Below are positions 23,501 through 64,000 of a stretch of 64,000 nucleotides of DNA, piece by piece. The notes under the pieces are model-generated. The model did no database searches. It saw only the letters and a program-made list of their open reading frames with translations, and was not told where the DNA came from. The position numbers and the translations under genes are program-made. Positions within the stretch are counted from its first letter, which is position 1. Every line of letters starts with the position of its first letter. The stretch spans positions 65,635,829-65,699,828 of the forward strand of contig OW028573.1 in assembly GCA_932294295.1 (NCBI GenBank), read 5' to 3'. This DNA comes from Alitta virens. Its lineage: Eukaryota > Annelida > Polychaeta > Phyllodocida > Nereididae.

Positions 23501-24466
23501 GTCAGTGATGTTGACGAAAGACCTTCTGTTCATCAGTATGAGGACTGTGCACCTTATATACCACACGAATTAGAGACAAATGTTGATGATGTCATAGAGA
23601 TTCACAACCAAGCCCCAGACACTGATGAACATATGGATGCTTTCTTGGCAGACTCAGTTAACTCCCTGGGCCAGTTGAATATTGAGTGGATTGAGGATGA
23701 CATATCTTCCTTAATAGCTCCCCCACCACCGCCAGTGGTTGATGAGGCAGAGGGAGAAGTGGATGATTTCTTGGAAAAGGTGATAGAAAGTACAACCTTG
23801 AAGAGGCGAACAGGTTCACAACATCGAAACAGACAAAGTGACTCATCTCTGCCGCACGTGTCTGCTGCTCGGCCCACCCCACTCCGCTTTAGTGTACCCA
23901 ACTCAGATCCAGCCTTCCATGACAACTTAGCATTTAGTCCTCCATCTGAGAACCCACCAGAAGAGCCGGCTTATGCTACTGTTAACTCGTTTAACAGAAA
24001 CGTCTTCAAACCTATCCGTCCAGGTTCCGCAGCCTCATCATCTTGTAGGAGTGACCAGCAAGTTCCAATGAGTCCAGGCAGTTCACAGCCCACTAGGTCC
24101 ACCCCATCTCCAGACAGGGAGATGCTGGAGATGTTGGCTCATAGAACAGACTCTGGCATCTTCATCCCTAGATACTCTGATACCTGGCCAGACAGTGACT
24201 CCCCATACAGGTCACCAAGTGATGACGTCACCTGGTCACCCCCTGACAACGTCAGTTCAATGAGTGTCATAGAGGTCCTCAGAGCCTTACGTTACATTGG
24301 CATGAAGCCCCATGTGATCAGTAGGTTCCAAGATGAACAAATTGATGGCAAGCAGCTGCTGGAGTTAGATGACACATTACTTAGAGAGGGCTTCCCAGAG
24401 TTAAATGCTCTAGAACGCAAAAAGATTAGAGATTTCATAGCAGGCTGGAGGCCAAAGAAACTTTAG
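17555..24466 (+). CDS. GAREM: GAREM-like adaptor with CABIT and SAM domains, 821 aa
   Basis: Two exons: 17555-17897 and 22344-24466, phase-1 join DFN-G-WFWF, 822 codons including the stop. Domain order is GAREM-like. The CABIT domain spans about residues 26-330 (KPFLLYTGRRCSKVLAANV; LPVLIKLAYGQPPS). A long linker has an acidic run (DDDFDDDEDDD), tyrosine motifs NYEVINEG and PAYATVNSF that could be SH2 ligands, and a proline run APPPPPVV. A C-terminal SAM domain covers about residues 752-821 (VLRALRYIGMKPHVISRF; LLREGFPELNALERKKIRDF). Vertebrate GAREM1 is similar in length (about 870 aa) and links EGFR-type receptors to GRB2 and SHP2. The 4.4-kb intron sits exactly where the paralog at 11360 has its intron. 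A degraded copy of the 3' two-thirds of exon 2 lies at 31711-32868. Confidence 0.93.
17898..22343 (+). other. 4.4-kb GAREM intron
   Basis: Single intron between the two GAREM coding exons, donor gtgagt and acceptor ctttctgttgcag. It holds a short poly-G run, AT and ATCT microsatellites, and near its 3' end a foldback element (22211-22307). The part at about 18960-19150 is rich in TAATTA-like and ATGCAAT-like motifs and could be regulatory. No nested gene seen. Confidence 0.75.
22211..22307. repeat. Short foldback element, copy 1 of 3
   Basis: Two arms containing CCCATTGGTTGAGGGACT and its near inverse CAGCCAATGGGAGTC, flanked by GTGAATC / GATTCAC and CACGTG/GACGTC words. Related copies lie at about 53244-53351 and 57086-57216. 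It is a non-autonomous hairpin (MITE-like) element, 37 bases upstream of the GAREM exon 2 acceptor. Confidence 0.7.
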
Positions 24467-24961
24467 GATAAAACAACATAATTATATCATATTTTCATTT
24501 TTTTTAAGGTCATTACATTTACATGGCATAAAAAGCTAAAATATTTACATTAATGTACAATAGAATTGTACTAAAACATCATGTAATCACCCACCTCAGT
24601 CTTGTAGACATTTCCTTACTTTTAACTTTTTTACAATAATAAAGCACCTTATAATCTACTTTCCTCAGTGTCTTGTGAAATTAATTGTTTGTGAATAATA
24701 ACCACTAGGTGATGAGATGGAAATTGAATTCAGTTACCCAAGACACCTGGTGTTGTATTGGTATAATCGTTTTATGGAATATGCACCCAGCTTTTAATAT
24801 ACTCAATTTCAGCATCATAGCTATCCCAGATAACCCTGACTATGAATTTTAGTCTTTATCACCATACCATTGCAGAGCGTCACATTTTCATAATCAATTT
24901 GGTATATTTCAATAACAATGGATTCTTAATATGTATAGTATGTATAGATATGTGGTAGATT
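24467..24961. other. GAREM 3' UTR and tail-to-tail spacer
   Basis: AATAAA at about 24638-24643 is the likely GAREM poly(A) signal. The whole spacer recurs with small changes at about 32870-33369, so it belongs to the duplicated block. No gene in it. Confidence 0.7.
24638..24643 (+). terminator. Candidate GAREM poly(A) signal
   Basis: AATAAA about 170 bases after the stop, conserved in the duplicated copy near 33040. Confidence 0.65.
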
Positions 24962-25895
24962 TTACAGAGAAGGGATGGCATGTCTCCATCCTGCATGCAG
25001 TTGATCACTTATTTCCTTGACCACATCTTTCAAAGTTGGGTTGTGTGCCTGGTTGTGATTTTCTTCTGGATCAGCTTCATGGTCATATAGCTCAACTCCA
25101 CAAACAATATCCCAGTTAGGTTAGTATTTAGGTGGCCCACTGAATGCCACCCATTCTGTGTATCTGTATTTGTCAGTGCGCATGGAATACCCCATGATTC
25201 CAGCAGCCGTAGGGTACTGAGAAAACACCCTGTCTTTCCATGGACCAGAAGGGTTCTTAATTAAAGGCATCAAGCTAGTGCCTTCAACACAATGGGGAAT
25301 GTTGTGGGAGTCCTCTGGACATAACGGGAGAGATGGCAATCCAGCAGCTTCAACCAAAGTAGGAAATAAGTCCACGAATTCTGTGAGTCTTCTTGTAGAA
25401 ATGCCCTTTTCTGTGAGTTTTGGGATGCGGATCATCATAGGAGCAGTGACTGCAATGTCAAAGTTGGTTTTCTTGCCCCACTCTCCATGTTCACCAAGCT
25501 GCCAGCCATGATCACCCAAGAATGAAACAATAGTTGAATCTGCCAGTCCCAAATCACTGAGTTGTTGCAGAACTGCACCTATCAGAATCTGTGTAGCTGA
25601 AGGCACTGTAATAAGCCCTACGTAGTTGCCTGATCTTGAAGTATGGCACAGTGGAGTTGACTCTTCCTGTGATATTCAACTTCATGATGTCCTCGAATTT
25701 CCTTAGTTCACCAAGCAATGGAAGGCATGTCCACAGGAGCATAGTTATTGTCAGGTAAGGACACAGTTTGAGCAGGATAAATTCCTCAGGAAAAAACAAA
25801 AGGTAGGTGAGGTTTGTGGAATCCAACTGCTAAGAAGAAGGGCTCATCAGAAACTAGAAACAACACATTCATTTTCTTTGGTGCAACTGATGAAA
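24962..25895 (-). pseudogene. Iduronate-2-sulfatase-like pseudogene (copy A)
   Basis: This is the left copy of the intact sulfatase at 33370-34875 and shares its downstream spacer. It is clearly dead. About 500 bases, equal to 34276-34778 in the intact copy, are deleted at about 25845, removing the CSPSR active-site motif. The start codon and signal-peptide region are also deleted near 25895. A two-base deletion breaks the frame near 25583, and a nonsense codon interrupts PPKY-QPNW near 25119. It lies tail-to-tail with the intact GAREM gene. Confidence 0.88.
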
Positions 25896-26714: not shown

Positions 26715-26835
26715 TGACTCGCCGAGTTACTCCTGGAACTCGCCGAGTTACTCCTGGAACTCGCCGAGTTACTCCTGGAACTCGCCGAGTTACTTCTCGA
26801 ACTCGCCGAGTTACTCCTCGAACTCGGCGAGTTAC
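26715..26835. repeat. Left subterminal 21-bp tandem array
   Basis: About five copies of a 21-mer, ACTCGCCGAGTTACTCCTGG plus one base, with a palindromic core ACTCGSCGAGT. Because 21 is divisible by three, conceptual translation gives repeated RRVTPGT words that are not a real protein. Confidence 0.9.
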
Positions 26836-26987
26836 TCGGCGCTATTTTCGCTCGTATTACACTCGGGGGGGATGTTCAGGAGTGCGAGGAGTAACTCGGC
26901 GAGTTGTAGGAGTAACTCGCCGAGTAACTCGTCGAGTTCTACCTTTAGTACATGCATCATCAGCGTAGGGGGTCGTATATAATATAA

Positions 26988-28398
26988 AAGGCCGCTGCTC
27001 CTCTAATATCAGTCCGATTTTCGTCAAATAAAGATTGTTTTGTAGTATAATTCATAGTGATTCCATACGTATTTTCGGATTTAAAAAAACCCGAATATTA
27101 AGCGAGATATTTGTCTGAGAAGGCAGTTGTCTTGCGGTGGCTGCTGCTCCATTTATATTAATCCGATTTTCGTCAAATCAGGATTGAATTGTAGTATAAA
27201 TCATACTGATTCCATACGCGTTTTTGGATTGAAAATAGACCAAATATTAAGCGAGATATTCGTCTGAGAAGGCAGCTAAGTTGGCGGAGGCAAACAGTGG
27301 TGCTCTCGCAGACGTCCGCGCCCGGACTGTATCAATGCAGGTAAGGCTGAGCGCTACTTTAAAAGGCTGCTGCTCCCCTAATATTAGTCCGATTTTCGTC
27401 AAATAAATATTGAATTATAGTCGAGTTCATACTTATTCCACACAGATTTTCAGATTGAAAATAGACCAAATATTAAGCGAGATATTTGTCTGAGAAGGCA
27501 GGTAGTCTGGCGGCGGCAAGGTGCTCTGTGTATGGCCCTGACATGAATGGTGTGGTCAATATTTTTGACCATTTTATATACATTGTTTGGATGAGCTTTA
27601 TTGCAATTCATTTCTACTCATTCTGCCAACTGCCATGACTGTTATGTCAATTGCTATTAGCATTTTGAATGATACAAAGAATGGGTGTAGAGCATACAGC
27701 AAATTCAATACATGTGTCAATTGCCTAATTGCCTAAATTGGGGTTCTTTGACCTGTCATTTCATGGTTTGTTCAAAGATGACACAGTAATTGCTATTAGC
27801 ATTTTGAATGATACAAAGAATTGGTGTAGAGCATACAGCAAATTCAATACATGTGTCAATTGCCTAATTGCCTAAATTGGGGTTCTTTGACCTGTCATTT
27901 CATGGTTTGTTCAAAGATGACACAGTAATATGACATTGTCTTGATTGTCATTCACAATTACAAAAATATGTAATTGCTTTCATTAATTAAAAGCAATATA
28001 TTTAATTGTAATTACCAGGCAATGATTATATTTGTATAACTTTCTTATCTTTTTGTGTTAATTTGAATCTTATTGTGATATTATGATCAGTATAAATTTG
28101 TGTATATTTTGTAAAATTTAAATCTAATATTGATATTGTAATTAGTATTTGTGATTTGATCTGTGATTTTATTTGCTATATTTAATTTACTTATACTGGT
28201 GCTCCCTGAAGCGTCCGCGCCCAGACTGTATTAATGCAGAAAGCTGAGCGCTTCTTTAAAAAGCTACTGCTCCCTTAATATTAGTCCGATTTTCGTCAAA
28301 TAAAGATTGTTTTGTAGTATAATTCATAGTGACTCCATAGGTTTTTTCGGATCGAAAATAGACCAAATATTAAGCGAGATATTCATCTGAGAATGTAG
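26988..28398. repeat. Four dispersed copies of a ~137-bp unit inside the nested element
   Basis: Copies lie at about 26988-27125, 27140-27275, 27363-27501 and 28260-28398. All share GTCCGATTTTCGTCAAAT (ATCC in copy 2) and AATATTAAGCGAGATATT (copies 1-4). The last two copies also share about 65 bases upstream (GTCCGCGCC...CTGAGCGC). They are same-orientation direct repeats of 80-90 percent similarity by eye. Confidence 0.85.
27652..27928. repeat. Near-identical 139-bp tandem duplication
   Basis: Two adjacent copies, at about 27652-27790 and 27791-27928, start ATTGCTATTAGCATTTTGAA and differ at about one base by eye (AAGAATGGG against AAGAATTGG). They are far more alike than the neighbouring 137-bp repeats, which suggests a recent duplication or an assembly artefact. 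Confidence 0.85.
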
Positions 28399-28463
28399 GT
28401 AGGCTGGCGTCGGCCTATCATTCGATGGGTGACTCGTCGCTGTCGTAGACACCTTGCTTCACC

Positions 28464-28655
28464 CGGCGAGTTACTCCTGGTACTCGGCGAGTTACTCCTG
28501 GTACTCGGCGAGTTACTCCTGGTACTCGGCGAGTCACTCCTGGTACTCGGCGAGTCGCTCGCTGAACCCGCCGAGTAACCCGCCGAGTAACCCGGCGAGT
28601 AACTCGGCGAGTAACTCGGCGAGTCACTCGGCGAGTCACTCGGCGAGTCACTCCT
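28464..28655. repeat. Right subterminal tandem array
   Basis: The first half is about five 21-mers of the GGCGAGTTACTCCTGGTACTC type. The second half is shorter 10-11-base units (GGCGAGTAACTC, then GGCGAGTCACTC). Together with the left array it brackets the element interior. Confidence 0.9.
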
Positions 28656-31521: not shown

Positions 31522-31707
31522 TACAAAATAGGTGAAAGAGGGCTGTCAATGTACCGCTTGAATCGTAGGTCATGTTTATTGAATTCACCTGATTGCACTA
31601 AAAAAGTGAAGAAATCATAAAATCGGAAAAATAGCTACATATTTAAAATGCTGTATGAATACTTTTGTCCAGGTACAAAAAAACACATAAATGCCTTTAT
31701 TACAATA
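31522..31707 (+). repeat. Left arm of an inverted repeat bracketing copy B
   Basis: This sequence is matched in inverted orientation at about 36064-36251, roughly 85-90 percent by eye. Shared words include ACAAAATAGGTGAAAG, GAATCGTAGGTCATGTT and GAATACTTTTGTCCAGGTAC. It stops within a few bases of where GAREM homology starts (31711). Confidence 0.85.
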
Positions 31708-31710
31708 TGC

Positions 31711-32868
31711 CATGAAAGCAGAAGACATCAAGGTGAAATCCAATTGCCATGACAATGATGTCCAGTCTGACCATGATCCTTAAACACAATGACCACTGGT
31801 GACTTTACCGATGATGATTTGATGATGATGAAGACGATGACACTTCTTGTGATGAAGGCACTCTATCAATTACAAGACAACCTAAAAAGTCTTGAGTATT
31901 TCCCGGAGTACACAGAAGAGCCAAATTATGAAGTGATAAACAAAGGTAAAACTGTGTACTACCCAGTGACACAAACTAATGATATGGTAACCAATGCTCC
32001 CTCAACTGTTCATACTTACAACCAAACCAAAAACCCTGCACTAAACAATTCTGGTCTTATCTTGGAAGTAACAAACTTACACAACCTGGACTCTAACTTA
32101 CTAAGAAAGCATTTGAAAGTCAGTGATGTTGACGAAAGACCTTCTGTTCATCAGAATGAGGAATTTACACCTTATATACCACTCGAATTCGAGACAAATG
32201 TGAATGATGTGAAGAGGCAGACAGGTTCACAACGTCGAAACAGTTGAAAGGACTCATCTTTGCTGAATGTGTCTGCTGCTTTGCCCATCCCACTCCCGTT
32301 TTAGTGTCCCCAACTCAGATCCAGCCTTTCATGACAACTCAGCATTTAGTCCTCCATCTGAGAACCCACCAGAAGAGCCGGCTTATGCTACTGTTAACTC
32401 GTTCAACAGAAACGTCTTCAAACCCATCCATCCAGGTTCCGCAGCCTCGTCATCTTGTAGGAATGACCAGCATGTTCCAATGAGTTCACAGCCCACTAGG
32501 TCCATCCCATCTCAACACAGAGAGATGCTAGAGATGTTGGCTCAAAGAACAGACTCTGGCATCTTCATCCCTAGATACTCTGATACCTGGCCAGACAGTG
32601 ACTCCCCCTACAGGTCACCAAGTGATGACGTCACCTAGTCAACCCCTGAAAACGTCAGTTCCATGAGCGTCATAGAGGTCTTCAGATCCTTACATTACAT
32701 TGGCATGAAGCCCCATGTGATCAGTAGGTTCAAAGATGAACAAATATGATGGCAAGCAACTGCTGGAGTTAGATGACACATTACTTAAACAGGGCTTCCC
32801 ACAGTAAAATGCTCTAGAATGCAAGAAGATTAGAGACTTCACAGCAGGCTGGAGGCCAAAGAACCTTA
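31711..32868 (+). pseudogene. Truncated GAREM pseudogene (copy B)
   Basis: This copies GAREM exon 2 from about position 23094 to the stop. It lacks exon 1 and the start of exon 2. Disabling changes include single-base deletions near 31770 and 31820 and a deletion of about 200 bases near 32210 that removes the proline-rich segment. There is also a frameshift near 32300, a nonsense codon at 32636-32638 (ACC-TAG-TCA where the intact gene has ACC-TGG-TCA), and further indels in the SAM part. The order and orientation relative to the sulfatase match copy A. Confidence 0.9.
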
Positions 32869-33369
32869 GTACATACTTATATTATATTTTCATTTATTTT
32901 TAAGGTCATTACAATATTACATGGCATAAAAATGCTAAAATATTTCCATTAATGTTCAATAGAACTGTGCTAAAACATCATGTAATCACCCACCCCAGTC
33001 TTGTGTACATTTCCTAATTTTAACTTTTTTATCAATAATAAAGCACCTTATTATATATAATCTACTTTCCTCAGTGTCTTGTGAAATTAATTGTTTGTGA
33101 ATAATAACCACTAGGTGATGAGATGGAAATTGAATTCAGTTACCCAAGACACCTGGTGTCGTATTGGTATAATATTTTTTATGGTATATGCACACAGCTA
33201 TGCTGAATTCCAGCGTCATAGCTCCTAAGTAAAGAAGATAACCCTGACTACAAATTTTAGTCTGTATCACCATACCATTGCAGAGAGTCACATTTTCATA
33301 ATCAATTTGGTATATTTCAATAACAATGGATTCTTAATATGTATAGTCTGTATAGATATGTGGTAGATT

Positions 33370-34875
33370 TTACAGAGAAGGGATGGCATGTCTCCATCCT
33401 GCATGCAGTTGATCACTTATTTCCTTGACCACATCTTTCAAAGTGGGGTTGTGTGCCTGGTTGTGATTTTCTTCTGGATCAGCTTCATGGTCATATAGCT
33501 CAACTCCACAAACAATATCCCAGTTAGGTTGGTATTTAGGTGGCCCACTGAATGCCACCCATTCTGTGTATCTGTATTTGTCAGTGCGCATGGAATACCC
33601 CATAACGATTCCTGCAGCCCTAGGGTACTGAGAAAACACCCTGTCTTTCCATGGACCAGAAGGGTTCTTAATTAAAGGCATCAAACTAGTGCCTTCAACA
33701 CAATGGGTAATGTTATGGGAGTCCTCTGGACATAACGGGAGAGATGGCAATCCAGCAGCTTCAACCAAAGTAGGAAATAAGTCCACAAGTTCTGTGAGTC
33801 TTCTTGTAGAAATGCCCTTTGTGAGTTTTGGGATGTGGATCATCATAGGAGTATGGACTGCAATGTCAAAGTTGGTGTGCTTGCACCACTCTCCATGTTC
33901 ACCAAGCTGCCAGCCATGATCACCCAAGAATGAAACAATAGTTGAATCTGCCAGTCCCAAATCACTGAGTTGTTGCAGAACTGCACCTATCAGAGAATCT
34001 GTGTAGCTCAAGGCACTGTAATAAGCCCTACGTAGTTGCCTGATCTTGAAGTAGGGCACAGTGGAATTGATTCTTCCTGAGACATTCAACTTCTTGATGT
34101 CCCCGTAAGTCATCAGTTCACCGTAGTCAGACCAAGCAATGGGAGGCATGTCCACAGGAGCATAGTCATTATCAGGTAAGGACACAGTTTGAGCAGGATA
34201 AAGAGACATGAATTCCTCAGGAAAAACAAAAGGTAGGTGAGGTTTGTGGAATCCAACTGCTAAGAAGAAGGGCTCTTTGACAGCAGCCAACTTCTTTAAA
34301 GTCTTCATAGCTTGCTGTGCAATTTGTTGATCTGGCAGAGGCTTCTGGGTGTAGACATCTGTTGGTACAGCAATCCAACTTCGGTTCAGACTGCTCCAGT
34401 AAGCATCATTTGGAGCATGGTAATAAGGTTCTGACCACGATATTGGATCATCCTTGCCTGATGCATGTCCTGGATGGAATATCTTGCCCATACCAATTGA
34501 CCTGTAGCCATTCTCCTTAAAATACTGTGGGATGGTGGTGAAGTTCCCTCCTACTTTTCTGAAATAGTGGTAGAGATCATAAACATGGGTGGTGTCAGGT
34601 CTTCTACCAGTCAACAAAGATGTCCTGCTGGGAGAACACAGCGCTTGTTGCACATAAGCCCTCTTTAAGACAAGACTCCTGTTTGCAAGTTTATCCAGGT
34701 TGGGTGAATGCAAAACTGGTGGGTGCACAGGACTAGGGAAATCTCTGCCTAGAAATGCCCCTAACTCTGGTCTCATGTCATCAGAAACTAGAAACAACAC
34801 ATTCATTTTCTTTGGTGCAACTGATGAAAATAACATTATCAGGAAAGAAATAACTGTAATGTGTGTGTAATCCAT
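33370..34875 (-). CDS. IDS: Iduronate-2-sulfatase-like enzyme, intronless, 501 aa
   Basis: A single-exon gene. I chose the ATG at 34873-34875 because it begins a typical signal peptide (MDYTHITVISFLIMLFSSVA); an in-frame ATG at 34905 would add ten residues. The sulfatase hallmark CSPSR-TSLLTGRRPDTT is present, with Cys at residue 80 as the formylglycine precursor. Metal-ligand Asp residues lie in VSDDMRPELG, and LGDHGWQLGEHGEW and GFHKPHLPF are also present. These, together with NFTTIPQYFKENGY and MGYSMRTDKYRYTEW, match human iduronate-2-sulfatase, which removes 2-O-sulfate from iduronate in heparan and dermatan sulfate in lysosomes. Vertebrate IDS has several introns; this copy has none. It appears intact, unlike its duplicate at 24962. 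The true substrate could differ within this sulfatase subfamily. Confidence 0.92.
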   Translation of the reverse strand: MDYTHITVISFLIMLFSSVAPKKMNVLFLVSDDMRPELGAFLGRDFPSPVHPPVLHSPNLDKLANRSLVLKRAYVQQALCSPSRTSLLTGRRPDTTHVYDLYHYFRKVGGNFTTIPQYFKENGYRSIGMGKIFHPGHASGKDDPISWSEPYYHAPNDAYWSSLNRSWIAVPTDVYTQKPLPDQQIAQQAMKTLKKLAAVKEPFFLAVGFHKPHLPFVFPEEFMSLYPAQTVSLPDNDYAPVDMPPIAWSDYGELMTYGDIKKLNVSGRINSTVPYFKIRQLRRAYYSALSYTDSLIGAVLQQLSDLGLADSTIVSFLGDHGWQLGEHGEWCKHTNFDIAVHTPMMIHIPKLTKGISTRRLTELVDLFPTLVEAAGLPSLPLCPEDSHNITHCVEGTSLMPLIKNPSGPWKDRVFSQYPRAAGIVMGYSMRTDKYRYTEWVAFSGPPKYQPNWDIVCGVELYDHEADPEENHNQAHNPTLKDVVKEISDQLHAGWRHAIPSL

Positions 34876-50103: not shown

Positions 50104-53100
50104 TCATTTTATTTGCTCCAACCACCGGATTGTCCAGCCTTTAGTTTCATCTTCTGGCAGGAGGTGGTGACATATCTGGAATTTATAAAAATATTTTAAT
50201 TACACCAACAAGGCTAGCTTATCATTTATACAAACTGTATAGTTGTTGAACATAATCCTAAATCTATATTCATTGTTTAATAGTTAATTTAACTTAACTT
50301 TATCTGTGTATTTGCACAATGGTGACTCACCTTTGCAGATTTGGCAGGAATCTTTGTAACTGGCTTGAAATTTTTCCTGTGGGTTGCAACATTTTCACTG
50401 GCAGTGCAGTCAATTTCTACATTAACTTCAGAGTAAGACTGAAAAAATAAATAAGCAAATAAACCGACTGATCAAACTAGCTCTTCAACAGATATGATAA
50501 CCAGGTATGTTTGTGTATTTCACCTTATTGTGTAGGACTAGGCAGGACCAGAAGTTGTTCGAGAAGATATGCAAGAACAAATCTTTCATATTTTTCACCT
50601 TCATGCCATCACCCTGTGAAGGATAAAACTTAAAGCCTAAAAAACATATCTTATTAAAACTAATAATCATGTAACATCTATGTAGCAATTAAAACAAAAA
50701 TCTGTTAAATGTGAGTTCTAAATGTGGGTACATCCACAGACCTGCTGTACTACAGCTTGTGCCAGGACATTTTCCATGTATCTGTTATCTGCTGTGAGTC
50801 CTGTGACCTTCAAGTCAGCTTCACAACCCTCGGTGTAAACTTCTATTTTGAAGGGACATGCCTGTAACAAAAATTCATGGACACACTTAACATTAAATTT
50901 TAACATATACTGATACTGCCTTACCAAGGTCATGGGTGGGTGGATTAGGGGTTTAGGGCTTCACATTCTATATTAATTTTCTGCACCCGATGGGCTTATT
51001 AGGACAGGCAGGGACCATGGCAATGAGGTGAAGGATGAAACAGCCATCAGACTTAGGCTCGACCGGGAATTGAAGCCAGGACCCAGTGGTTGGAATCCCA
51101 GAGTGCTGCCACTGAGCTAGGCCCCCGCCCCGTTTACCAAGGCTAAGTTATGCCAGTTAAGCTTACTTCGTCCATTATAAGTCCTTTGTTGTACCCAATG
51201 GATTGCAGAGTCACCCAAAAGTCCTCTGTGTCTCCCTGGTTGTCCTCAGCCTCAAGCTGATTCAGGTCCAAGAAACCTTTGTGGGTCAACTCGTTGTTTC
51301 TTAGCTCAACATTTTCTGAAATCAAGTCAAAGTAACTTTAACTCAATCAACTCAGAGATATGCATTAATTCAGCAATAATTACAAAATATTTAAGTTAAC
51401 CATTTTATTTAATGTCTACCTTCGACAACATCCCACTCCTCATCAGCCACCTCTTCGCCGCTTGTTCTGACATTAAACAGACTGAATTCCTCCCTGCTCA
51501 ATGTCCCATTGCCATCCAAGTCACACACTTCAAACATATCTAGCAGAACTTCCCTGTTAGGAAACAACAATTAATATTAAAAAAAACTTTAAATAGATGC
51601 AATACATACGTTCTTTGAAAGTTAAGCTATGGGTATCAATATTTTACAGACTTTTTCAAAACAGTTTTATTAAATGTCTTCCAGTTTTTAGATATTTTAT
51701 AATTTGCTATTTCTATCTCTGATTTGATTTTTTTTTTACATGTAACAGCATTTTGAGCAATCTTGGAAATGACTCTTTATGTATCAGATTAGGATAGGAT
51801 GTTAATTCGTAAAGGGAAATGCTAATTGCATCTCAAAATTTAGGCTAGTGACTGCTCGGACTATACAGAGCTGCTACAGCTCTAGGTTAAATTTATGACC
51901 TGGTATATATGTTGTTTCTCTACATAGCTCAAGAGCTACATATATTAGCATCTACAGAGATTTAGGAACAAATAAACAAACTTGGTTAAGTCATGCATTT
52001 TTAGGCAAGGGCAAATTTAATCTAAAGGAACAGCATCAAATCGGTCAGGTAATGCTCAAAATGAACTTTTACTTACTTGAATGATTTTGTCAGAACAAAT
52101 TTTCCTTCTTTGTCTTTTTTAACGAGTTTTGTTTCAATTTTTGGCTCCGATTTCCTGCTTTGGAAGCGACAGCCGGTTGTGAAGGGCAGTAGCTTGTATT
52201 TGCCCTTAGGAAGGTCACAGCGAAGGCCATATTTCTGATTAAAAAAGTCAATGCAATATACAATGTAACCTCGCTTAATGAATTACTTGAATTTTTTATG
52301 TCTACAGTTCTGTTGGTGGATGATAGAAATTCAATGAAGTGAATGACTTAATTACGACAATAAAAAGAGTAAGTGTTAGTTACAAGTTTCAGCATACGTT
52401 CCACATTGCTTTCTATTAGACAGTCCTTAAGCACACAAAATAAAGGTACTATGACAGTTATCTTACCCCTTTGCTGTCCCTGTGTCTTGTAAAGGTGACT
52501 AGAACATTTCCATCTTTGTCCGGTTTATTTCGGAGTAGGAAAAGCATTGTATCTATGGGAGGCAAACCTTCTCGCAAGCTACTAAGGTCAGCTAAAATCA
52601 ACAATATTGAAATATTAAAAGATATATATATATATATATATATATTCAGACCAGGCTAAACTGCTAACTCAGCTTCAGATGTATGATTTCATGTTAATTT
52701 TTGATGAAAAATACAGAAATCTTTAGTACTTTAAAAAAAAGGAAAAAAAAAAGAATTTGGGCTTGGATGAATCTCCAGTTCATCCAAGATTTGAGCAAGC
52801 TCAAGACTTACCACCAGGCCTCAGGGCAAATGACTGAATCGTAATCCAGACACTTGTGTCTTCTGGGATTACTAAGGAATATTGGTGGGAGACTATTTGG
52901 TCATTGTCTTCCATGAAGAAACAACCTTTGTAATGGCAGTGGTTCCAGTCCTAAAAAGCAAAAAAAGAAGAAAAAATATTGTTAAGGGTACCCCAGTTAG
53001 TTAATTTATTAGATAAACCATTGGATAAACTATATGATAATTTGTATAGAACCTGTTTCAGAAAATATTTGAATAAGCTATTATTCATTACAAGCTCTGA

Positions 53101-56100
53101 ATAAGTGATTTTTTTTTTCTTTTAAAACCATCCATTTTTGTTGGTAGAGTTTTGTTTGATGTCTTCGAGCTTATTCGTGAGGTGCAATGATTGAGAAAGC
53201 ACAGTGCTCACCAAATTTGTTGCCAAATTTGAAACCAATCTCATAGACTTGGAAGCTAACTCCAAATGACGTCATGTGAATGTAGGGCTCTCATTGGCTG
53301 AGGGATTGCTTTAACCAATAAGAGTCCTGGATTCACATGACGTCCTGCTGCCCTGGTTAAGCATAAAATCAAAGAGATTTGTTCGAAAACCAGCATCATC
53401 GCATGTAGCGAGCGTCTACAAAATCTCATTGTGAGCAACGCACCACAACTAAACCAGGCACTATTGACCCTAGGAATATTTAGAAATATTCCTAGATTGA
53501 CCTATGGTCGTCGATTCAAACTTAAATCCGCCGAGATTAGGATATTACCGTAACGGAGGGTATTATGGACAGGGCAGGTATTTTCGACACTCACATTAAA
53601 ATGTTAACAATTTTTTATTTATTTTTAACAAACTAATTTAAGTGTCGAAAATACCCGCCCTGTCGATAATACCCTTTGTTACGGTACACGCTCTTTGCAA
53701 ACTCAAGCAATCCAGAATGTCGAACATCGCACTAATTTGTGCGGCCAGCAGTACATTTTAATATGTGTAACGATAACGTAAATGTGGGTCACTCGAGTTT
53801 CCGGGGACCCTGAAGATTCAAGGGTCCTGAGCAGAGACAGGAATTTGGCTGTATTAGATTGAGGCTGGACAAGCAAATTATTATCGTTGCTTCTATGGTT
53901 TAGTTTAGATGATTTGTTATCATATATAGTATTCGTACTAATAGGAATAAATCAGACATACTTTGAGCTTCTTGGGTTCTGAGAGTTTCAGTTTTTTGTC
54001 TGGTGATATGATCGGTGACTTGCTGCGTTCCTTCCTCTCATTGTTGTTGGAAGTTGGAGGTTTTTCTGGAATTATGAGATTAGATTAATGCCAGTAAAAG
54101 CATTTATGAACAACAACTGGGTCTACAACAGAACGTCATTGCTGTAAAGGTCCTTTATGATGCTCAAGTCAAAATCTTTCGCAATCCCTGCTTGATTTTA
54201 TCCATGGAGTCTCTAGTGACTCCATGTTTTGTCCAACATATAGTTTTACAACTGGCCTATTCTTGACAGTTATGGCCACTTTCTTTATTGCATGAGTAGC
54301 ACCTCATCTGAATTACCTCTGCTTTGAACAGTTTACTGACTGTGTTTAAAGCAAGGGATATGACAAGGTCATCTTATGTTAAAAAGGTCTAACCAAATAC
54401 ATACAGTAAATAAAAGGTCACGTTTATTAACAATCGTCAGCCTTTATGGAGAAATGACAAACGTGTGCATGCTAAATAAATCACAAATAAGAAGTGCTAA
54501 ATGCCCACACACCACAACAGAACTTAACTTATGGCAGTATGAAATTGTGGACGCCAAAAAAAAACAAAAACAAACATGAATGAAATAAAAATGAATGAAT
54601 TTGCATTTTAGGCTGCCTGTGTATGGTCTATGCGAGAAAAAAAAAGACTGTAAATTACTGTGATTTTTAGTAATAGCACTTGATACACTTCATTGTGATC
54701 ATATTATTGACAATTCCTGCCCCATCGACAATTAACATGCCACTCACTCTTGTTGTTAGACCATCCAGACAGACCACATCTTCAAAGTAGATTCACAATA
54801 TTTTGAATCCTTTCTGGCCAAATTTAAATGTTTCTGCATATGTATCTTTACAGATCTCTCTAGTTTTTTAGACCTTCTCTATTGAACCAGGGTCCTACAT
54901 CCCTTTTTACAGCTGACAAAGCAGCCGTGTTAAAAATATATCATTAATTGCTCAGTAAGGGATGCTGATCAATTAAGGTTCAGCTTCAGTTTATGTTTTT
55001 CCTTGGTACTGACAGTCACATTCTCTAAAACCATTTTGTAATATCATATCTATATGTCACCACCAAATTTCTGTGAAATTTCCCTTAATTTAGTGCGTAA
55101 CTGCGCTGTATTCTGCTGAAATTCTTTCTAATAATTTTGATTTGCTCATAGAAAACTGTTTTTTCTTTCTTTTTGGCAAGTCTTCAAGGCATAAAAACAT
55201 CAGACAATGGTCTTTGTCACATTGTTTGCTATTGTCTGAAAACTGCAGGTGGCAAGTTTAAAAAATACAGCCAAAAACAATCCTGTATTGAATGCAATAT
55301 CATCAGTGATTCATGACATTTACATAACAATTATCCTATTCTATTCATGGCATTTTACATAATAATTATTCTGTTCTATTCCATAATCAGATTCAGTGTA
55401 TTCTATAAAATATTAAAACAAATAATCACGACCATCAAAAATCACATCTAATTTAAACATGCAACTGCATTTCCATGATTTGATGCAGGGAATCTTGCTG
55501 TTTATTCATAGCACTTATAAAATCTAATCTAAACACATGCACAACAACAGTCTACCTTGTGACCCTGAGGGAGGTTTCATAAAATTGCGAGGCTTAGGCT
55601 TAGGAGGTGGAGTGTCTGTAAATTAATGTGAATACAGTTGTACATAATGTAAGTGAAAGTAAAAGTAGAAAGTACTCTTAGTTATAAATAACTGGATGCA
55701 AGAAACTTAATGAGCACACAGAGACAGACAAAGCCCAAAATGCATCACATACTGGAAAGTATTTACAAAGTGATTCATGCATTATAAATATATATATGTT
55801 TATTGCTTTAGACACACATAATGCATCACAATATGGTGTATTTGCAAAATATTCATTAAATTTAAACTGCAAAATAAAAGAAAAGTTGATAAATTATCAG
55901 GTTGTGAATCTGGATCCACCTAAAATGCATTGTTTCGTAAATCTCTAATTAACTGTATGATACAGTGATCTTCCGTAGAGCATTGCAATACTTGTGTAAG
56001 GTTTGGATTTATTTTGTCAATTCAGTCACTGATTACCATAACTGTAACATGATCACAAATTTCTTTGCCTTCTTCACCATTATTAAACGGCCCTTTATGT

Positions 56101-59100
56101 TTGTTTCTGTTGTTGTAGATGACACAGGAGAGAAAAAAAACTTTGTATTCTCAGATAACAAAATGTTAAAATAAAACCAAACAAAAACTTAAATGCCAAA
56201 TAATGAACATTTATTTGTGCAAATAAATTAATGACGTGTGATTACAAATTTCTCAAATAATTCAGACTACCAAAAATAACCTGAGAAAGTTACAACTTAC
56301 GAAAATTAAAGTTATATTTCATTTGATTAAAAAAGAATGCTTTTTCTTAAAATAAAATTAATACTGACAAACGAGAACATTTCATGAGAAAAAAAGGTGA
56401 AATAATTCCTATATGTATAAATTAAAATGCCAAAAATTCATTATCACAGTCTTTTGTATTGAGATCATTTATTTCCTGTATGCATCATGCAGCTCTTTGA
56501 ACAGTTGCCATGCACATCGGCTGGTTTAATTGGGCACAGATTTTTGAGATTTCAAAGAAGTTTTCGATCCCTGAACATCTACAACAAACAGGACAACAAA
56601 CACGTGAGCTGTTTTTTTTTTTTTCATCATACACACACCCCGATCTATGTCTTTTTCAGCCTACCGGGGAGACAAGATTTTTTAGGTTCTTCTTTCGGCA
56701 AATTTTCAAAAGAACAATAAGGCCCCTTCGCATATGGCAGTCAGGTTCAAGGTCACTTGTGTTAATATTTACAACAAGACACCCTACTTTGAATTTGGGT
56801 TACTAATCTAAAATCTGTTTGCCAATACACCACCTTCCTGCCACCATCAGTTAAATAAAAATTGCTTGGATCTTGAAATGTGTTCAGTACACTGTTCACC
56901 TTCTAAAAGTAATCAAAGTGAATATCATTACCATTTTTGGAGGATTTCTTTTGCAGAGACACTTTTGACCCAACAACAATGTCATCATCGTCTGAATCAT
57001 CATCTTCATTGTCCTTGTTTTCTGCATCTATAAATACAAATGATTTAATTAAGTGTACATGTTGGATAAAAGCAGATTTAACAGACATGGAAGCTAAACT
57101 CCAGAGGAGGCCACGTTATAAGAATCGAAGACGCCCATTGGGCAGTCCCTCAACCAATGAGGGGTCTTGGATTCACAAGAACTCCCCTGAGGTTTAGTTT
57201 CCAAGTCTTTGATTTGCTGTAATCGCTAGACCTGGGTTCTTTGGTTTGGGGCATGCTAAACTTTAAAAAGATATATGACATGGCATAGTTCCTCAAGGCT
57301 AAACACAACAACTACATTGCAATGTCAGATAATGTTTGAACTGTACCTGGATATCTGTGGTTTGCAATGTTATTTCTAAGTTATGACGAACCCCAGATCA
57401 TATATTATAACAGACATACAGTCGTCAGTTTTATGAAAGCATAAAAGGACAGTTTGCACGAATTTCCACAGCCAGAAATCTGTAGGTAGATGCAGTTGAA
57501 AACAATGGCAAAGATCCCACTTGCCCAATTAAACCAGCCATGGCTGTATGTTACCATCATGTACCTGTTCAATTGCCAATAGTTTGAAATCTCACACTAT
57601 ATCTTAGCATTACATGAGACCTCTGCAGTAAGTGTACCTTTTGATTCGTCTATCTCAGAGTCATTAACACCATTCTTTTCAGCAGCCGTGTCCTTATCAG
57701 CATCTTCATCTCCATCAGCAGCATTTCTCACCTCAGCAGTTTCCTCAGCAGTTACCTCCTCAGCAACCTCCTCATCTTTGCCCTCTAGCGGACAGCCAAA
57801 GAGACAGAGTAAGAAGGTTGGGGTTGTCAAAATACATGACATTTATCTCTCTTCCATGTATTTTGATTTTCATGTATATTAATAATATTATCATATTTGT
57901 CGTTAATCTTTATCTTTATGATTGCTGTAATTTATTCTCTTCTTTTGATATTGGTAGTTGGTAGTATGCTTATTTTCAATTTGTTTAATTTTCTTTGCAA
58001 GTAACAACAGAATTTAATCATAAGCAATCGCTGTCATCTAATTAGGAAATATAACAGAGGAAATAAAACAAAAGCAGACTTTCTTATGAGCATAAATTAC
58101 AGTAGCATAATAGCTAGGTCAGAATACAAGGTGAAAATATGTCAGGTATGTGATAAAGGCTATAATTACTAACTACATAACTCTGTAGGCCTAGTCTCAT
58201 TTCACTATGTGATAGTATCTACAGTATCATGCTTAAATTGCTTAACTATACTGAATTAGATCATTTTTCGTGGATTATCAGTCAGCTCCATGCAAAAGCA
58301 ACAAGAAAAAAAGTTAGTTTTAGGAAGGGTGTACGATGAGGATCAGAACTGAGAACTGCACTGAGGAATGCCATTGCAAAACTACATGGGTATTACCAAA
58401 TGTTGAAAGGTGTGGTATTATAAACAGCAAGATTTTGTGATCACACTCATTTCACTCTCAAGCAAACTTACTCTCGTCTACCAAGGATTTCAATGAAGTT
58501 GTTGATCCAACTTTGTCATGTCTCCCTGTAAGTTCATCGTCATGCATGTTAATGTACCAATTGCATTTTGTGGCAGGTGTTAGTCAATTGCAGTCATTCA
58601 GAAATATACAGAGGATGCAATTAGAGAATGTAATAGCTTGGTAATCATGTGAAGCAAATGAGCATGCCTTGCCAACTTACTTGATCTTGCTGAAGCATTT
58701 GATTTGACAGAAACTTGAGATCCCATAGGGTCCTGTTTGGCTGTAAAATTGTTATTAATGCTATGGGTAAATTACACAACCTATAAGGATGATATTGCAA
58801 TTCAGGAGCACAAACAAAATTAAATTAATCCTAGACCTTAACCCTAAAATTACCAAAAATAAATGAATAAACTAAAACTCACTGGCTTTTGATGATGTGC
58901 TGGGCTTCAAAGAAATTTGTGATCCAAGGGATTCATCTAAAATGTGAGTTATCAAACCATTAAAATATGGCTAATTTTCAGCAGACATCCTAGATTGCTG
59001 ATGAGAGACAATTGCAACAATAGCAATTATATTTAACTGTGTAAACCTTACAGACCTTGAATAATATAGGCCACATTGATCAGCCTAAAACTGCATAAAA

Positions 59101-62100
59101 TAACACTGGGTATTAAGAATCTGACAGGCGTCTAACAGGACACTCACTTTTCTTCTCTGATCTTGATGACTTAATGGAAACTTGGGAACCCATTTCATCA
59201 TTGGCTGTCGAATCAAGTAGATAAAATGGAATCATAAAAAGATGGGAATGGAAACAAAGTATGAAATATCCTATATTTACACTTGTACCAAATATTGTCA
59301 ATGATACCATGTAGCATATTAACAGTGGACCCAACTCACCCGGTTTTTCGTCTTTCACAGACTTTAAAGACACCTTAGAACCTATATCTTCACCTGGCCA
59401 AAACATGTACGGATTAACATGAGTACATGCAGTGCATTTACCTGAATTATGGATGCCTTCATATAAATTTCAGTGCATATGAACTCACCCTGTTTTTCTG
59501 ACTTTGCAGATTTTAAAGATACCTTAGAACCCATATCTTCATCTGTTAAAGATAAGTTTCAATCTAAAGCAACTAGTGATGTTCTGATGTTGATGAGCAC
59601 TTTATAGATATGCTTACATTTAAGACTGGACTAATTCCAGTGAAGCTGGCAAAGTAGTTATTCACTTTGGAAATACACTGTTTCCTATTAAATTAATATG
59701 ATTGTTTATAATTTGTTAAATTAATAAAAATGTATGTCCTAGATATTTGGAAAAGTTTGAGGTCATCCTTACTTTTCTTTTCTGACTTTGTTGATTTCAT
59801 TGACAACCTTGAACCCATATCCTCATCTACCATAAAAATATTTTTAAGTTTTATTAGTGAATAACGTTTTTGTCTTTATCTTTACTCAAGCAGTATATTT
59901 ATCAAAAGCTAATGAAGTCACACAAAAGTTATTTTAGACTCATTTTACTTACTTTTTTTCTGAGACTTAAGTGAAATTTGTGATCCTGTCAGGGTACCTA
60001 CAATAATTATGAAGGTAAAATATATAATCTGGGAAATATTCTTCTTATTCTGACAGTGTTCTAAAAGTATAGAACAATTAGATTTTAGGAATCCACTCTT
60101 ACTTTTCTTTTCTGATTTGTTTGATTTCAGTGACACTTGTGATCCCATTTTGACATCATCCATATTCTGGTCAGCTTTTGAAGAAAGAGTAATGCAATCC
60201 GTCATTGTTAATTAATATTATATGATCAATTAATTTGGTTTTCTCATTGAAGATTTGTTGCACTTACAAGACTTTAACGTTGAAGTTGACTCGATGGAAG
60301 TCTGTGAACCCATTGGGTCATCTCCTGGAGCTTTCAAAAGTCAGTGAAAAATTTGAACCAATTGAACTATCAGTCAAATTGTTTCTTTATCTTAAATTCA
60401 TATTTTCTTATTTACTATGTACAGTTGTGCGCATGTTAACAATTGCGAGGGTTATTTGTGACATCAAGATTAATTTCATTAAAAGTGTTAATTCAGCTGT
60501 AAGCAGGATAGGGAGTTAGCCTTTACCAAGCCAAAGTAAGCTGGATAACAAATTCCCAAATTCCCAGGTAAGTAGATATGTTAGCATGGTTCAAAATTAC
60601 CAAACGTTTGGAGGCAAACAAATGTACACATATTTATAAATTAGATTTCAATGTATTCCATGCCTGAAGAGAGGTTATGTGCATATGCTCTGCTATACAT
60701 GGCCAATTGTGCCACGTGCATTTTCCATGAGAAGATAAACGCATGGAAAACGCATGTTTTTTGCCTCATTATAATTAGCTAACAACCATGTGTTTTCCAT
60801 GCGTTTAGCCTTCTCATGGAAAATGCATGAGGCACATTTGGCAATGTAGTTAATATAGGTATTTTAAATAATTTCTTTGAGGTTGGTAGGGAAGTACTGT
60901 GCAGGATTTGTCATTAGGCAAAACATAATCATGCCGTTAGTTACACTTAAATCATTCTCAAACTGGGTTAAAGATCTAGAAGAAAGCAACACACTCATTT
61001 GCTTACTTTGGTTAACTCCATTTGCAGAAATGCCCACATTCTCGTTCTCTGCTGGAAATTATGACATGTCATTCTCAGCTACAACAACCTCCACATTTAC
61101 AATTAAACACGATTTTGCAAAATATATTACCATGCACTTACTTTTCTGCTCTGATCTGGCAGATTTCAGTGAAACTTGAGACCCCATACCATTTTCTGAA
61201 TTATTAAATTTATAATTATATTACACTCTGATCTTATGCTAGAAGTGTTAATTAATGTATAATCATCCTTCCATGTCAATGACTCACGTTTAGTTTCTGA
61301 CTTATTCGTAGCTGACTTCAGAGATATTTGGGACCCCATTTTTACTTCCTCTAGTTTCTCAGCTGACCATTACAACAAATGACATGATTTATTAACAAAT
61401 ACATCATACCGACACCATTTAATCACGAATATTTGGTATGAAACTCAGTTCTATCATATAAAGACTTACACGACTTTTGGGATGCAGATGATTTCAGTGA
61501 AACCTGAGATCCTTTTGGCATGGATGAATCTAAAATGTTCAGTAATAAGCTGATAAATATCGGGTTTGCCTTACGATATATACACTCTATCTGATAATTA
61601 ATCCAACGTGTTTTCTTATTCGGGTAACTAAAACAAATGCACTGCAAGCAACGGCCAGGGAAGGGAAACACAGATTATGTACAGCCTGATGACAGTGTGA
61701 AATATGCATTATTAACTATTATCATTATCCATTATGTATTATATTACCTCAGAAGCATGGCTTATAATGAAGATACTTCAAAGAGTGGCCAAGCAAGGAA
61801 AGATAACCCTGAATAGAAGCAACAAAACCTTCTTGCTCTGGTGCAAAAATCGTTGAGAATCTGTGCCTGATTCCGTGCAACAGCACACCCAACAGCACAC
61901 CCAACAGCACACCCAGATGAGGAACTAGGATGAAAGCACAAGGCAGCACACCAAACCACAGATCATAATGATATAAACTCCAAAATAAATCCTCGTTAAC
62001 GTTCACAAAACATAGCAGTTTCAGTAACATGAGTATAAGGAGAATAGCTATATACAATGAGAAAGGGAACTTCAAATGATAATCAGTTCAAAAGTCAGGA

Positions 62101-64000
62101 AGAGATGTTATGACTTTTAGGCCACTCATAAATTAATACCATTCTTGTCACTTGATTCCACTGGTCAAATTTTCCCCAGAGGCAATGAAAGAAACAAAAC
62201 AAAATTTGAAGGTCTTCGTTTTATTCTCTAAGCACAAAAATCACCTTATGACCTTGTTTTTAACAGCTACCACTAGGCTGACTGAAGTTTCCAATAAAGA
62301 TTTGTTATATTCACGCTGTCAGCTTATGTCAAAATTAAAACTTGCTGCCATATCCACATATACATTAAGTAATATTGTCAAGCTGATGTTTCAAAGATGC
62401 TTTCCAAAACCAGGCTCAATTCTTATATTTTCTTAGATTTATATTAAGGGCCCAGGTGTAAAACAGCCATGCTGATCTGGTTTTAAAAAATAAATAAATA
62501 AAATAGATTGACAAAACTTCACTCACTTTTTTTGCTTTTTCTTGCACTCCCTGGTGAGGAATCAGCTTTTGCAGATTTGCGTTTCTCCTTTTTTTCCATC
62601 CGTCTTTTTGCTACTTTCTTCGCTTCTTCTTGGGTGCTCAGCATCATGTTACAAAACTTAAAATAAAGGCAAGACAAGCACAGATAATTATATGACACAA
62701 AAGGCAAAGTATGACTAAAAGGTTACTCAGAATACATTTGATGCTTAACAGGAAACAAAACATCTGGGGGTGCTGTGTGTCAGACTCACACAATTTTTAC
62801 ATACATGTATACATTTTGAGCCAACCAGATAAGCACCAATGTAGACATCATAATAATAAATGTATGGCAAAGTCAATAGATTACAAGTAAGTAATTCGAG
62901 CAAAGCACTGCAACAGAATTGATGAAACAGGACTGGTTACAGCCTACAATTAAGCTCAACAGGACAAAATATCTGCAAGGCGTGGGATAAACAAAGAATG
63001 GCGTATGTGTTGTATGTCATTACAGTAAGCACATTGCATACAAGTTAGAAGTGTATTTCCATCCAAAAGGCTGTACCTTTTCATATGTAAAGACTCCCTT
63101 ATGAAACATAGAGAAGAAGAAATTTATATAATGCCCAAACGAGGATGTGAAAACTTTGTCAAGACAGATATTTAGGTAACTATAACGGAGATGAGCACTT
63201 TTCGTCAATGAAGATATCAAAGTGTTCTAAAAGAGAACAAAAGGATTTGCGATAGAGCTATCAATATTGATCTACCTTTTACAATACTTAACTATGATAA
63301 TTAGAAGTTTCAAAACTAGAATCAAAAACTCACTTCTTTGTAATCCAATTTTCCATTACCATCCTCATCAACTTCATTAATGATGCGTTGAACCTCTTCC
63401 TTGGTCATTTTCTCTCCTTTCTGCAATGTTAGTTTATTTCAAGTATTGCAATAATCATACTCCCCTGATTACCCCCACAATATCAGACTTATTTCCCATT
63501 ATTCCCATTTACCTCAAGTAATTACACAATATAACTTAATATTCTATTATTCCAATTTAACAGTGGGCTTACTCCATCGGGCGGGGGATGAATCATGTCA
63601 TGAGGCCTATTAGGACACAGGCTGAGACTACTGGTTCATTGAAAACAACAACATTGCTATGCCTAAATTGGGTAGTTTTAGTCTTAGATAATTGAGATGT
63701 ATATATATATACCAATGTAACCTACATTACACATGACTCTGAAGAGCTCGTTGTTGGAGATGAAACCATCACTGTTCCTGTCAATCTTTTTGAAGGCAGC
63801 CATCAGGTCATCCTCTGTAGTTTGTTTAACTTCACGGCATATGTCAACGAATTCGTCAAAACTAACCGCCTCTGGAGTAACAAGACAAGCAAAGTCGGTC
63901 AAAGAATTTGCACAAATAAATGCCATTAAATAATACAGAGGAAGAGCTCTGAATTCGACTATTAAATACCTTTGCTTGATGTCCAGAATTTATCAAGAGC
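50104..64000 (-). CDS. EFCAB7: EFCAB7-like EF-hand protein, 5'-partial, with inserted repeat-exon array
   Basis: Conserved 5' exons: 64000-63970 (partial), 63871-63722, 63416-63334 and 62656-62527. The array follows (separate entry). Conserved 3' exons: 54065-53962, 52950-52812, 52591-52467, 52234-52077, 51553-51420, 51315-51167, 50861-50742, 50613-50524, 50438-50331 and 50175-50104. The sum is 883 codons plus stop in one frame. EF-hand loops are DRNSDGFISNNE, DEDGNGKLDYKE and DLDGNGTLSREE. GEKMTKEEVQRIIN, DWNHCHYKGCFFMEDN, RNNELTHKGFLDLN and ACPFKIEVYTEGC match human EFCAB7 in order. EFCAB7 partners IQCE to anchor EVC-EVC2 at the cilium base in Hedgehog signalling. Human EFCAB7 is 629 aa; this protein is much longer because of about 350 inserted residues. 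The acceptor at 63417 (aaag) was chosen by phase over one four bases upstream. Confidence 0.92.
50921..51142 (-). mobile_element. tRNA-derived SINE with 9-bp target-site duplication
   Basis: On the minus strand, from about 51127, the sequence reads CCTAGCTCAGTGGC (A-box-like), then CCAACCACTGGGTCC and GGCTTCAATTCCC (B-box-like), the order of a tRNA head. A non-tRNA body follows to about 50936. TTACCAAGG flanks both sides (50921-50929 and 51134-51142). It lies in the intron between EFCAB7 exons 51315-51167 and 50861-50742. Changed B-box bases suggest it is no longer a functional tRNA. Confidence 0.85.
53244..53351. repeat. Short foldback element, copy 2 of 3
   Basis: Inverted arms with GACGTCATGTGAAT and ATTCACATGACGTC, and inner CTCATTGGCTGAGGGA and TTAACCAATAAGAG. 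Lies in an EFCAB7 intron. Confidence 0.85.
53547..53685. repeat. 139-bp hairpin element
   Basis: Arms of about 45 bases begin ACCGTAACGGAGGGTATTAT and end with the inverse (ATAATACCC...TTACGGT), also sharing CAGGGC-GGTATTTTCGACACT. The spacer is about 45 AT-rich bases. Separate from the adjacent foldback copy at 53244. Confidence 0.88.
57086..57216. repeat. Short foldback element, copy 3 of 3
   Basis: Outer arms GGAAGCTAAACTCCAGAGG and CCTGAGGTTTAGTTTCC are inverse matches. The inner part has CCCATTGGGCAGTCCCTCAA and AACCAATGAGGGGTC plus GGATTCAC, as in the other copies. Lies in an EFCAB7 intron. Confidence 0.82.
60702..60845. repeat. ~144-bp foldback element in the mini-exon array
   Basis: Arms share TGCATTTTCCATGAGAAG, AAACGCATGGAAAACGCATG and GTGCC in inverted order around an AT-rich loop. 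It lies in the intron between repeat exons 61195-61142 and 60330-60268. Confidence 0.85.

What the first reader, a model, noticed from the sequence alone, without database searches (positions are those of the whole stretch)
55556..61529. EFCAB7-like gene carries a tandem array of phase-1 mini-exons, each encoding one GSQVSLKS motif
Thirteen consecutive exons of 45-75 nt each encode one copy of a short motif (G-S-x-V/I-S-L-K-S) with a variable Ser/Lys/Glu tail. Every exon is phase 1-1 and a multiple of three, so each can be skipped, retained or duplicated without a frameshift. They interrupt a family that in human has no such segment. A further GSKVSLQ copy sits in a larger exon nearby. This looks like expansion by exon duplication creating a multivalent, probably disordered and phosphorylatable linker between the EF-hand pair and the C-terminal half of a ciliary Hedgehog regulator. 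Function and name are unknown to me.
Basis: partly seen in the sequence, partly recalled or inferred. Interest (0 to 1): 0.88.

Follow-up and report, generated by a model that had tools for sequence, protein, structure and literature searches.

The report
One-motif-per-exon array in EFCAB7
In this animal, whose nearest sampled relatives are annelid worms, the gene EFCAB7 (a cilium-base protein in vertebrates) holds 13 tiny predicted exons that each spell one copy of the same eight-residue motif without disturbing the reading frame, which likely gives the protein a flexible linker whose number of modifiable sites is set by splicing.

Summary
On the minus strand an EFCAB7 ortholog carries 13 motif-bearing mini-exons (45-75 nt, phase 1-1, multiples of three). 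A 14th mini-exon candidate lacks the motif and may be chance. The strict motif occurs 15 times, always inside a predicted exon; shuffles give 0.017. Copies are saturated at silent sites (pS 0.75) but constrained at replacement sites (pN 0.16-0.18), and their introns are mostly unrelated: old duplicates kept by selection.

The array is not unique. 93 of 120 listed relatives, mostly molluscs, carry the motif at least once; oysters have 10-15 copies, apparently inside one large exon. In molluscs, isoforms differ by whole in-frame cassettes, several holding exactly one motif. An oyster ortholog's model shows the linker disordered. The central serine has K/R at +2 in 61 of 68 copies.

Best reading: a splice-tunable, disordered, multi-site linker built on an old motif, enlarged by exon duplication here and inside one exon in oysters. 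Expression here, phosphorylation, partners and the human state are untested.

The parts
62527..62656 (-). Exon N3: end of the EF-hand pair and a basic stretch (net +10 over 37 residues); leaves in phase 1 into the array
61470..61529 (-). E1, 60 nt, GSQVSLKS; same position after the EF-hand exon as the single-motif cassette of molluscs
61288..61362 (-). E2, 75 nt, GSQISLKS
61142..61195 (-). E3, 54 nt, GSQVSLKS
61007..61051 (-). E4, 45 nt, candidate mini-exon without the motif; uncertain
   Evidence: 1 comparable pseudo-exon in 7,310 nt of remaining intron
60268..60324 (-). E5, 57 nt, GSQTSIES
60103..60174 (-). E6, 72 nt, GSQVSLKS
59953..59997 (-). E7, 45 nt, GSQISLKS
59773..59826 (-). E8, 54 nt, GSRLSMKS
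59489..59542 (-). E9, 54 nt, GSKVSLKS
59340..59393 (-). E10, 54 nt, GSKVSLKS; E9 and E10 are 83% alike over 64 nt
59148..59204 (-). E11, 57 nt, GSQVSIKS
58883..58936 (-). E12, 54 nt, GSQISLKP
58681..58740 (-). E13, 60 nt, GSQVSVKS
58472..58525 (-). E14, 54 nt, GSTTSLKS
57638..57784 (-). E15, 147 nt, acidic exon without the motif
56932..57027 (-). E16, 96 nt, acidic stretch then GSKVSLQK
56526..56578 (-). E17, predicted alternative last exon: GSKTSLKSQKSVPN then TAA; AATAAA at 56473
   Evidence: splicing and cleavage untested
55556..55615 (-). E18, 60 nt, proline-rich, ends in GSQ; phase 1-1
50104..54065 (-). Exons C1-C10: calpain-III-like domain, further EF-hand region, second beta domain, stop at 50104
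   Evidence: fold from the oyster ortholog
63334..63871 (-). Exons N1-N2: EF-hand pair; the 5' end of the gene lies beyond the window

Best explanation
This is the EFCAB7 gene of a lophotrochozoan animal in which the linker between the EF-hand pair and the calpain-III-like half is encoded mainly by 13 predicted one-motif, phase 1-1 mini-exons, and the array likely works as a splice-adjustable, disordered, multi-site tether. Shown: exon anatomy, constraint on the motif, relatives with the motif, and mollusc isoforms that gain or lose whole cassettes. Inferred: exon duplication raised the copy number here; inclusion of 0 to 13 cassettes sets linker length and the number of serine-hydrophobic-basic sites; these sites are phosphorylated by a basophilic kinase (PKC- or PKA-like, label recalled), which would shift the charge of the basic array next to the acidic E15/E16 segment and so tune how freely the EF-hand pair and the ECH domains reach their partners at the ciliary base. 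Choice of E17 would make a short form with EF-hands and motifs but without the ECH domains.
For: Gene and frame. Motif 15 against 0.017 expected. Constraint: pS 0.751 against pN 0.179 over the 8-codon core of 15 copies, 0.755 against 0.158 for the 13 mini-exons; 4 of 210 intron-flank comparisons with z above 3. Relatives: 93 of 120 listed carry at least one strict copy, and oysters P0002, P0003, P0006, P0033 have 15, 10, 11, 13. Cassette splicing: 15 of 15 M. galloprovincialis models differ from X1 only by loss of whole segments within residues 207-429; single-motif cassettes occur in mussel, oyster, scallop, clam and abalone. An 899-aa oyster form with the array and 590/608-aa forms without it sit on contigs of at most about 3 kb, as spliced transcripts would. 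Disorder: residues 181-524 of the oyster ortholog below pLDDT 50. K/R at +2 of the central Ser in 61 of 68 copies, against 17-29% for other linker Ser in three proteins. Charge: array net +15 over 265 aa, acidic part net -23 over 66 aa.
Against: No transcript of this species; no phosphorylation or binding data. 27 of 120 listed relatives lack the strict motif, among them both named annelids (Paralvinella has one looser GSQSSLKS), a chiton and a freshwater mussel, so the array is dispensable for the family, or gene models missed it. K/R at -2 is present in only 5 of 15 window copies. In the oyster model no copy rises above the disorder level, so no docking on the protein itself is seen.
Confidence: 0.5

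Rival explanations
1. Plain entropic spacer: the exons only set linker length, and the motif has no partner or modification.
For: Linker length varies greatly between isoforms and species, and the whole linker is predicted disordered. Some relatives lack the motif.
Against: The eight codons are held (pN 0.18 against pS 0.75) while the tails vary, and the same core with K/R at +2 recurs across molluscs and this species. A pure spacer needs no fixed core.
Confidence: 0.2
2. Docking array: each copy is a short binding motif for one folded partner, and the number of copies sets avidity; phosphorylation is secondary.
For: Invariant G-S-x-x-S with hydrophobic residues at positions 4 and 6, repeated at short spacing in a disordered chain.
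Against: No partner is known; position 3 varies (Q, K, R, T, S, H), which speaks against an LC8-type motif with fixed Q (recalled). EVC2 binds ECH2, not this segment (PMC10413113, passages).
Confidence: 0.2
3. E17 is the point of the system: the array feeds either the full protein or an early polyadenylated form with EF-hands and motifs only, a decoy or an expression switch.
For: E17 has an acceptor, a motif copy in frame, a TAA and AATAAA 52 nt after the stop.
Against: AATAAA/ATTAAA occur about 2 per kb across the gene, so the signal is weak evidence. No protein of this kind with a named source was returned; P0122 (324 aa, at most 1017-nt contig) could be such a form or a fragment.
Confidence: 0.15
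4. Decaying exon array: most copies are unused in this species, open by descent only.
For: E4 may be a decayed copy; no cDNA is at hand.
Against: 13 of 13 motif exons keep frame, both splice sites and the motif although silent sites are saturated.
Confidence: 0.05

Closest known systems
[quoted passage not shown]
   Same: EF-hand pair, linker, calpain-III-like domains around a further EF-hand region; best hits are annotated EFCAB7
   Different: 13 mini-exons with one motif copy each in the linker; most listed relatives have 0-2 strict copies, the long bivalve forms 1-15
Oyster EFCAB7 long isoform (Crassostrea, Saccostrea)
   Same: 10-15 strict copies of the same motif in the same place, lost as a block in short isoforms
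   Different: The array appears to be one exon of about 830 nt: the ends of P0121 depart from the spliced protein exactly where a phase-1 GT and AG would lie (inference)
Titin PEVK region
   Same: Disordered repeat region of many short exons whose number changes by exon duplication and loss (PMC6469411, passages)
   Different: Other sequence, muscle spring rather than a ciliary protein, and no fixed eight-residue core (last point recalled)

Membership tests
EFCAB7 | N-terminal EF-hand pair | tested here: met
   EF-hand_7 7.5e-21, residues 20-83 of the predicted protein
EFCAB7 | Overall homology to named EFCAB7 proteins | tested here: met
   Named EFCAB7-like hits down to E 4.8e-164; up to 54% identity over 494 core columns
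EFCAB7 | Calpain-III-like (ECH) domains | tested here: met
EFCAB7 | Tethering EVC-EVC2 with IQCE at the ciliary base | not testable with these tools
   Known for vertebrates (PMC10413113, passages)
Tandem symmetric-exon repeat arrays (titin PEVK kind) | One repeat per short exon, all exons in the same phase and multiples of three | tested here: met
   13 of 13 motif mini-exons
Tandem symmetric-exon repeat arrays (titin PEVK kind) | Disordered product | tested here: met
   On oyster ortholog P0003 only: residues 181-524 below pLDDT 50; the spliced window protein was not folded
Tandem symmetric-exon repeat arrays (titin PEVK kind) | Variable inclusion by splicing | tested here: inconclusive
   Seen in molluscs; no transcripts of this species
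LC8-binding motif arrays | Fixed Q in the motif core (recalled) | tested here: not met
   Position 3 is Q in 9 of 14, 7 of 41 and 3 of 16 copies in window, oyster and scallop sets

The most novel reading that the evidence does not exclude
A splice-programmed phospho-rheostat in a ciliary Hedgehog scaffold: lophotrochozoan EFCAB7 uses an eight-residue cassette, reached independently by exon duplication (one motif per exon, this lineage) and by repeat growth inside one exon (oysters), so that splicing dials 0 to about 15 kinase sites, and a motif-bearing last exon makes an ECH-less decoy.
Probability: 0.25. Interest if true: 0.75.

Novelty: new variant of a known kind. Interest (0 to 1): 0.52.

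Why it matters
EFCAB7 is studied in vertebrates as a docking factor for EVC-EVC2 in Hedgehog signalling. A conserved short motif, repeated up to 15 times and spliced as cassettes, shows that in molluscs and this worm-like animal the linker carries its own information. No paper in the held library prints six variants of the motif. Two exon architectures for the same repeat give a clean case for asking whether copy number itself is selected.

Tried and rejected
LC8 motif: rejected because the Q is not kept. TCN against AGY serine codons as a sign of common descent: uninformative, since 23 of 24 other serines in these exons are TCN too. Recent duplication: rejected for most copies because silent sites are saturated and introns mostly unrelated; E9/E10 is the closest pair. 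Hidden further copies in the introns: none by the strict or a looser pattern. Nearest-neighbour test of copies: 11 of 14 window copies are closest to another window copy, but group sizes bias this, and 17 of 41 oyster copies are closest to another group. as a census of long EFCAB7: incomplete, as it returned 4 of the 24 proteins in its length range, missing 20 Mytilus ones. Foldseek listed only EF-hand proteins in its first 50 rows; the calpain match came. Species: the core tree groups the window with two annelids (100/99; 14 rows, P0122 left out of the tree; no brachiopod, nemertean or phoronid was in the set), so annelid is likely, not shown. P0122 (unnamed source) is 55% identical to both annelids over about 180 aa, 52% to a chiton, 42-48% to two bivalves. 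Not all mollusc isoform differences lie in the linker: Haliotis asinina and M. californianus also vary a 7-8 residue piece at the end of the second EF-hand. Paper searches gave nothing on EFCAB7 repeats in their listings; of the 75 papers naming EFCAB7, 30 were listed and passages of 3 were seen. The 2014 EFCAB7/IQCE paper is not held.

Full report
What is there. The window's minus strand carries an EFCAB7 gene whose first exons lie beyond position 64000. I read 30 exons from 63871 to 50104 without E17 (N1-N3, E1-E16, E18, C1-C10). N1-N3 encode the EF-hand pair. Then come 14 mini-exons (E1-E14, 45-75 nt), an acidic exon (E15), a 96-nt exon (E16), a possible last exon (E17), a proline-rich exon (E18) and the exons of the C-terminal half. 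Thirteen mini-exons hold one copy each of G-S-x-V/I-S-L-K-S. All mini-exons, E15, E16 and E18 are multiples of three and phase 1-1.

Is it more than chance? The strict pattern matches 15 times on the minus strand, nowhere on the plus strand and nowhere outside the predicted exons. Shuffles of the array region give 0.017 on average and never more than 1 in 300. I drew the exons with the motif in view, so exon placement and motif are not independent; but splice sites, frame and length agree in 13 of 13. E4 has no motif, and about one such pseudo-exon is found in the 7.3 kb of remaining intron, so I leave it open.

History of the copies. Over the eight core codons silent differences are at pS 0.75, near saturation, while replacement differences are at pN 0.18 for all 15 copies and 0.16 for the 13 mini-exons. 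Only 4 of 210 comparisons of intron flanks stand out. The copies are therefore mostly old and kept by selection on the protein. E9 and E10 are the closest pair.

Relatives. The homology search returned 289 proteins, 120 of them listed; named sources among these are molluscs and two annelids. 93 of 120 have at least one strict motif, 27 have none, both named annelids included; Paralvinella has one looser copy. Oysters have 10-15. A search for long forms gave 16 proteins, 15 of them from named bivalves and one unnamed (P0006, which over its first 203 residues is identical to C. gigas P0113), and all 16 carry the motif. That search was incomplete, returning 4 of 24 known proteins in its range. 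No vertebrate protein was listed in any search, so the statement that human EFCAB7 has no such segment is neither confirmed nor denied here.

Splicing. In M. galloprovincialis 15 of 15 models differ from X1 only by whole missing segments within residues 207-429. Single-motif cassettes of 13-20 residues are present or absent in mussel, oyster, scallop, clam and abalone. These are mostly NCBI gene models. In oyster, intronless open frames with the full array (P0006, 899 aa, contig at most 3029 nt), with one copy (P0088, 608 aa) and with none (P0120, 590 aa) look like transcript assemblies. The oyster array itself seems to be one exon: P0121 (88.6% identical to P0006) departs from the spliced protein at both ends as if it read into introns. 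Its last codons, I-S-K-H then the end, fit a phase-1 GTAAG donor, and P0096 shows the junction residue D expected when that exon is skipped. I did not see oyster DNA.

Structure. The model of oyster ortholog P0003 (28 sequences, mean pLDDT 63.4) is below 50 from 181 to 524, the whole linker, with folded parts on both sides. The C-terminal half matches Miro EF-hand regions and calpain domain III.

Likely mechanism. In 61 of 68 copies from 10 proteins the central serine is followed at +2 by K or R, against 17-29% for other linker serines in three of them. This fits a basophilic kinase site (PKC- or PKA-like, recalled). The array is basic (net +15) and is followed by an acidic part (net -23). I infer that cassette number sets linker reach and site number, and that phosphorylation shifts the charge balance. 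In vertebrates EFCAB7 with IQCE recruits EVC-EVC2 through ECH2, and PKA's catalytic subunit was found in the EVC interactome (PMC10413113, passages). Whether any of this links to the array is untested.

Alternative last exon. E17 carries a motif copy, then TAA, and AATAAA at 56473. Such hexamers are common in this gene (about 2 per kb). If used, the product would have EF-hands and the motifs but no ECH domains.

Verdict. Observation confirmed, interpretation partly supported. It is a new variant of a known kind: a symmetric-exon repeat array in a disordered linker, in a known gene family, with a motif that six literal searches did not find in the held papers.

Noticed in passing
60696-60848 and 53546-53686: Two near-palindromic elements, 84% and 81% self-complementary, in introns of this gene, one inside the array between E4 and E5; they look like small hairpin transposons (MITE-like).
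   Followed up: partly
23088-25845 and 31707-34275: Tandem duplication at 91-92% identity with a CABIT-domain gene on the plus strand and a sulfatase gene on the minus strand; one CABIT copy and one sulfatase copy look shortened or out of frame.
   Followed up: partly
26717-28633: Cluster of short diverged repeats, 79-99% alike.
   Followed up: no
P0121 (no window coordinates): Protein cluster with 53 members, close to oyster P0006, that reads as an array exon with intron-derived ends.
   Followed up: partly
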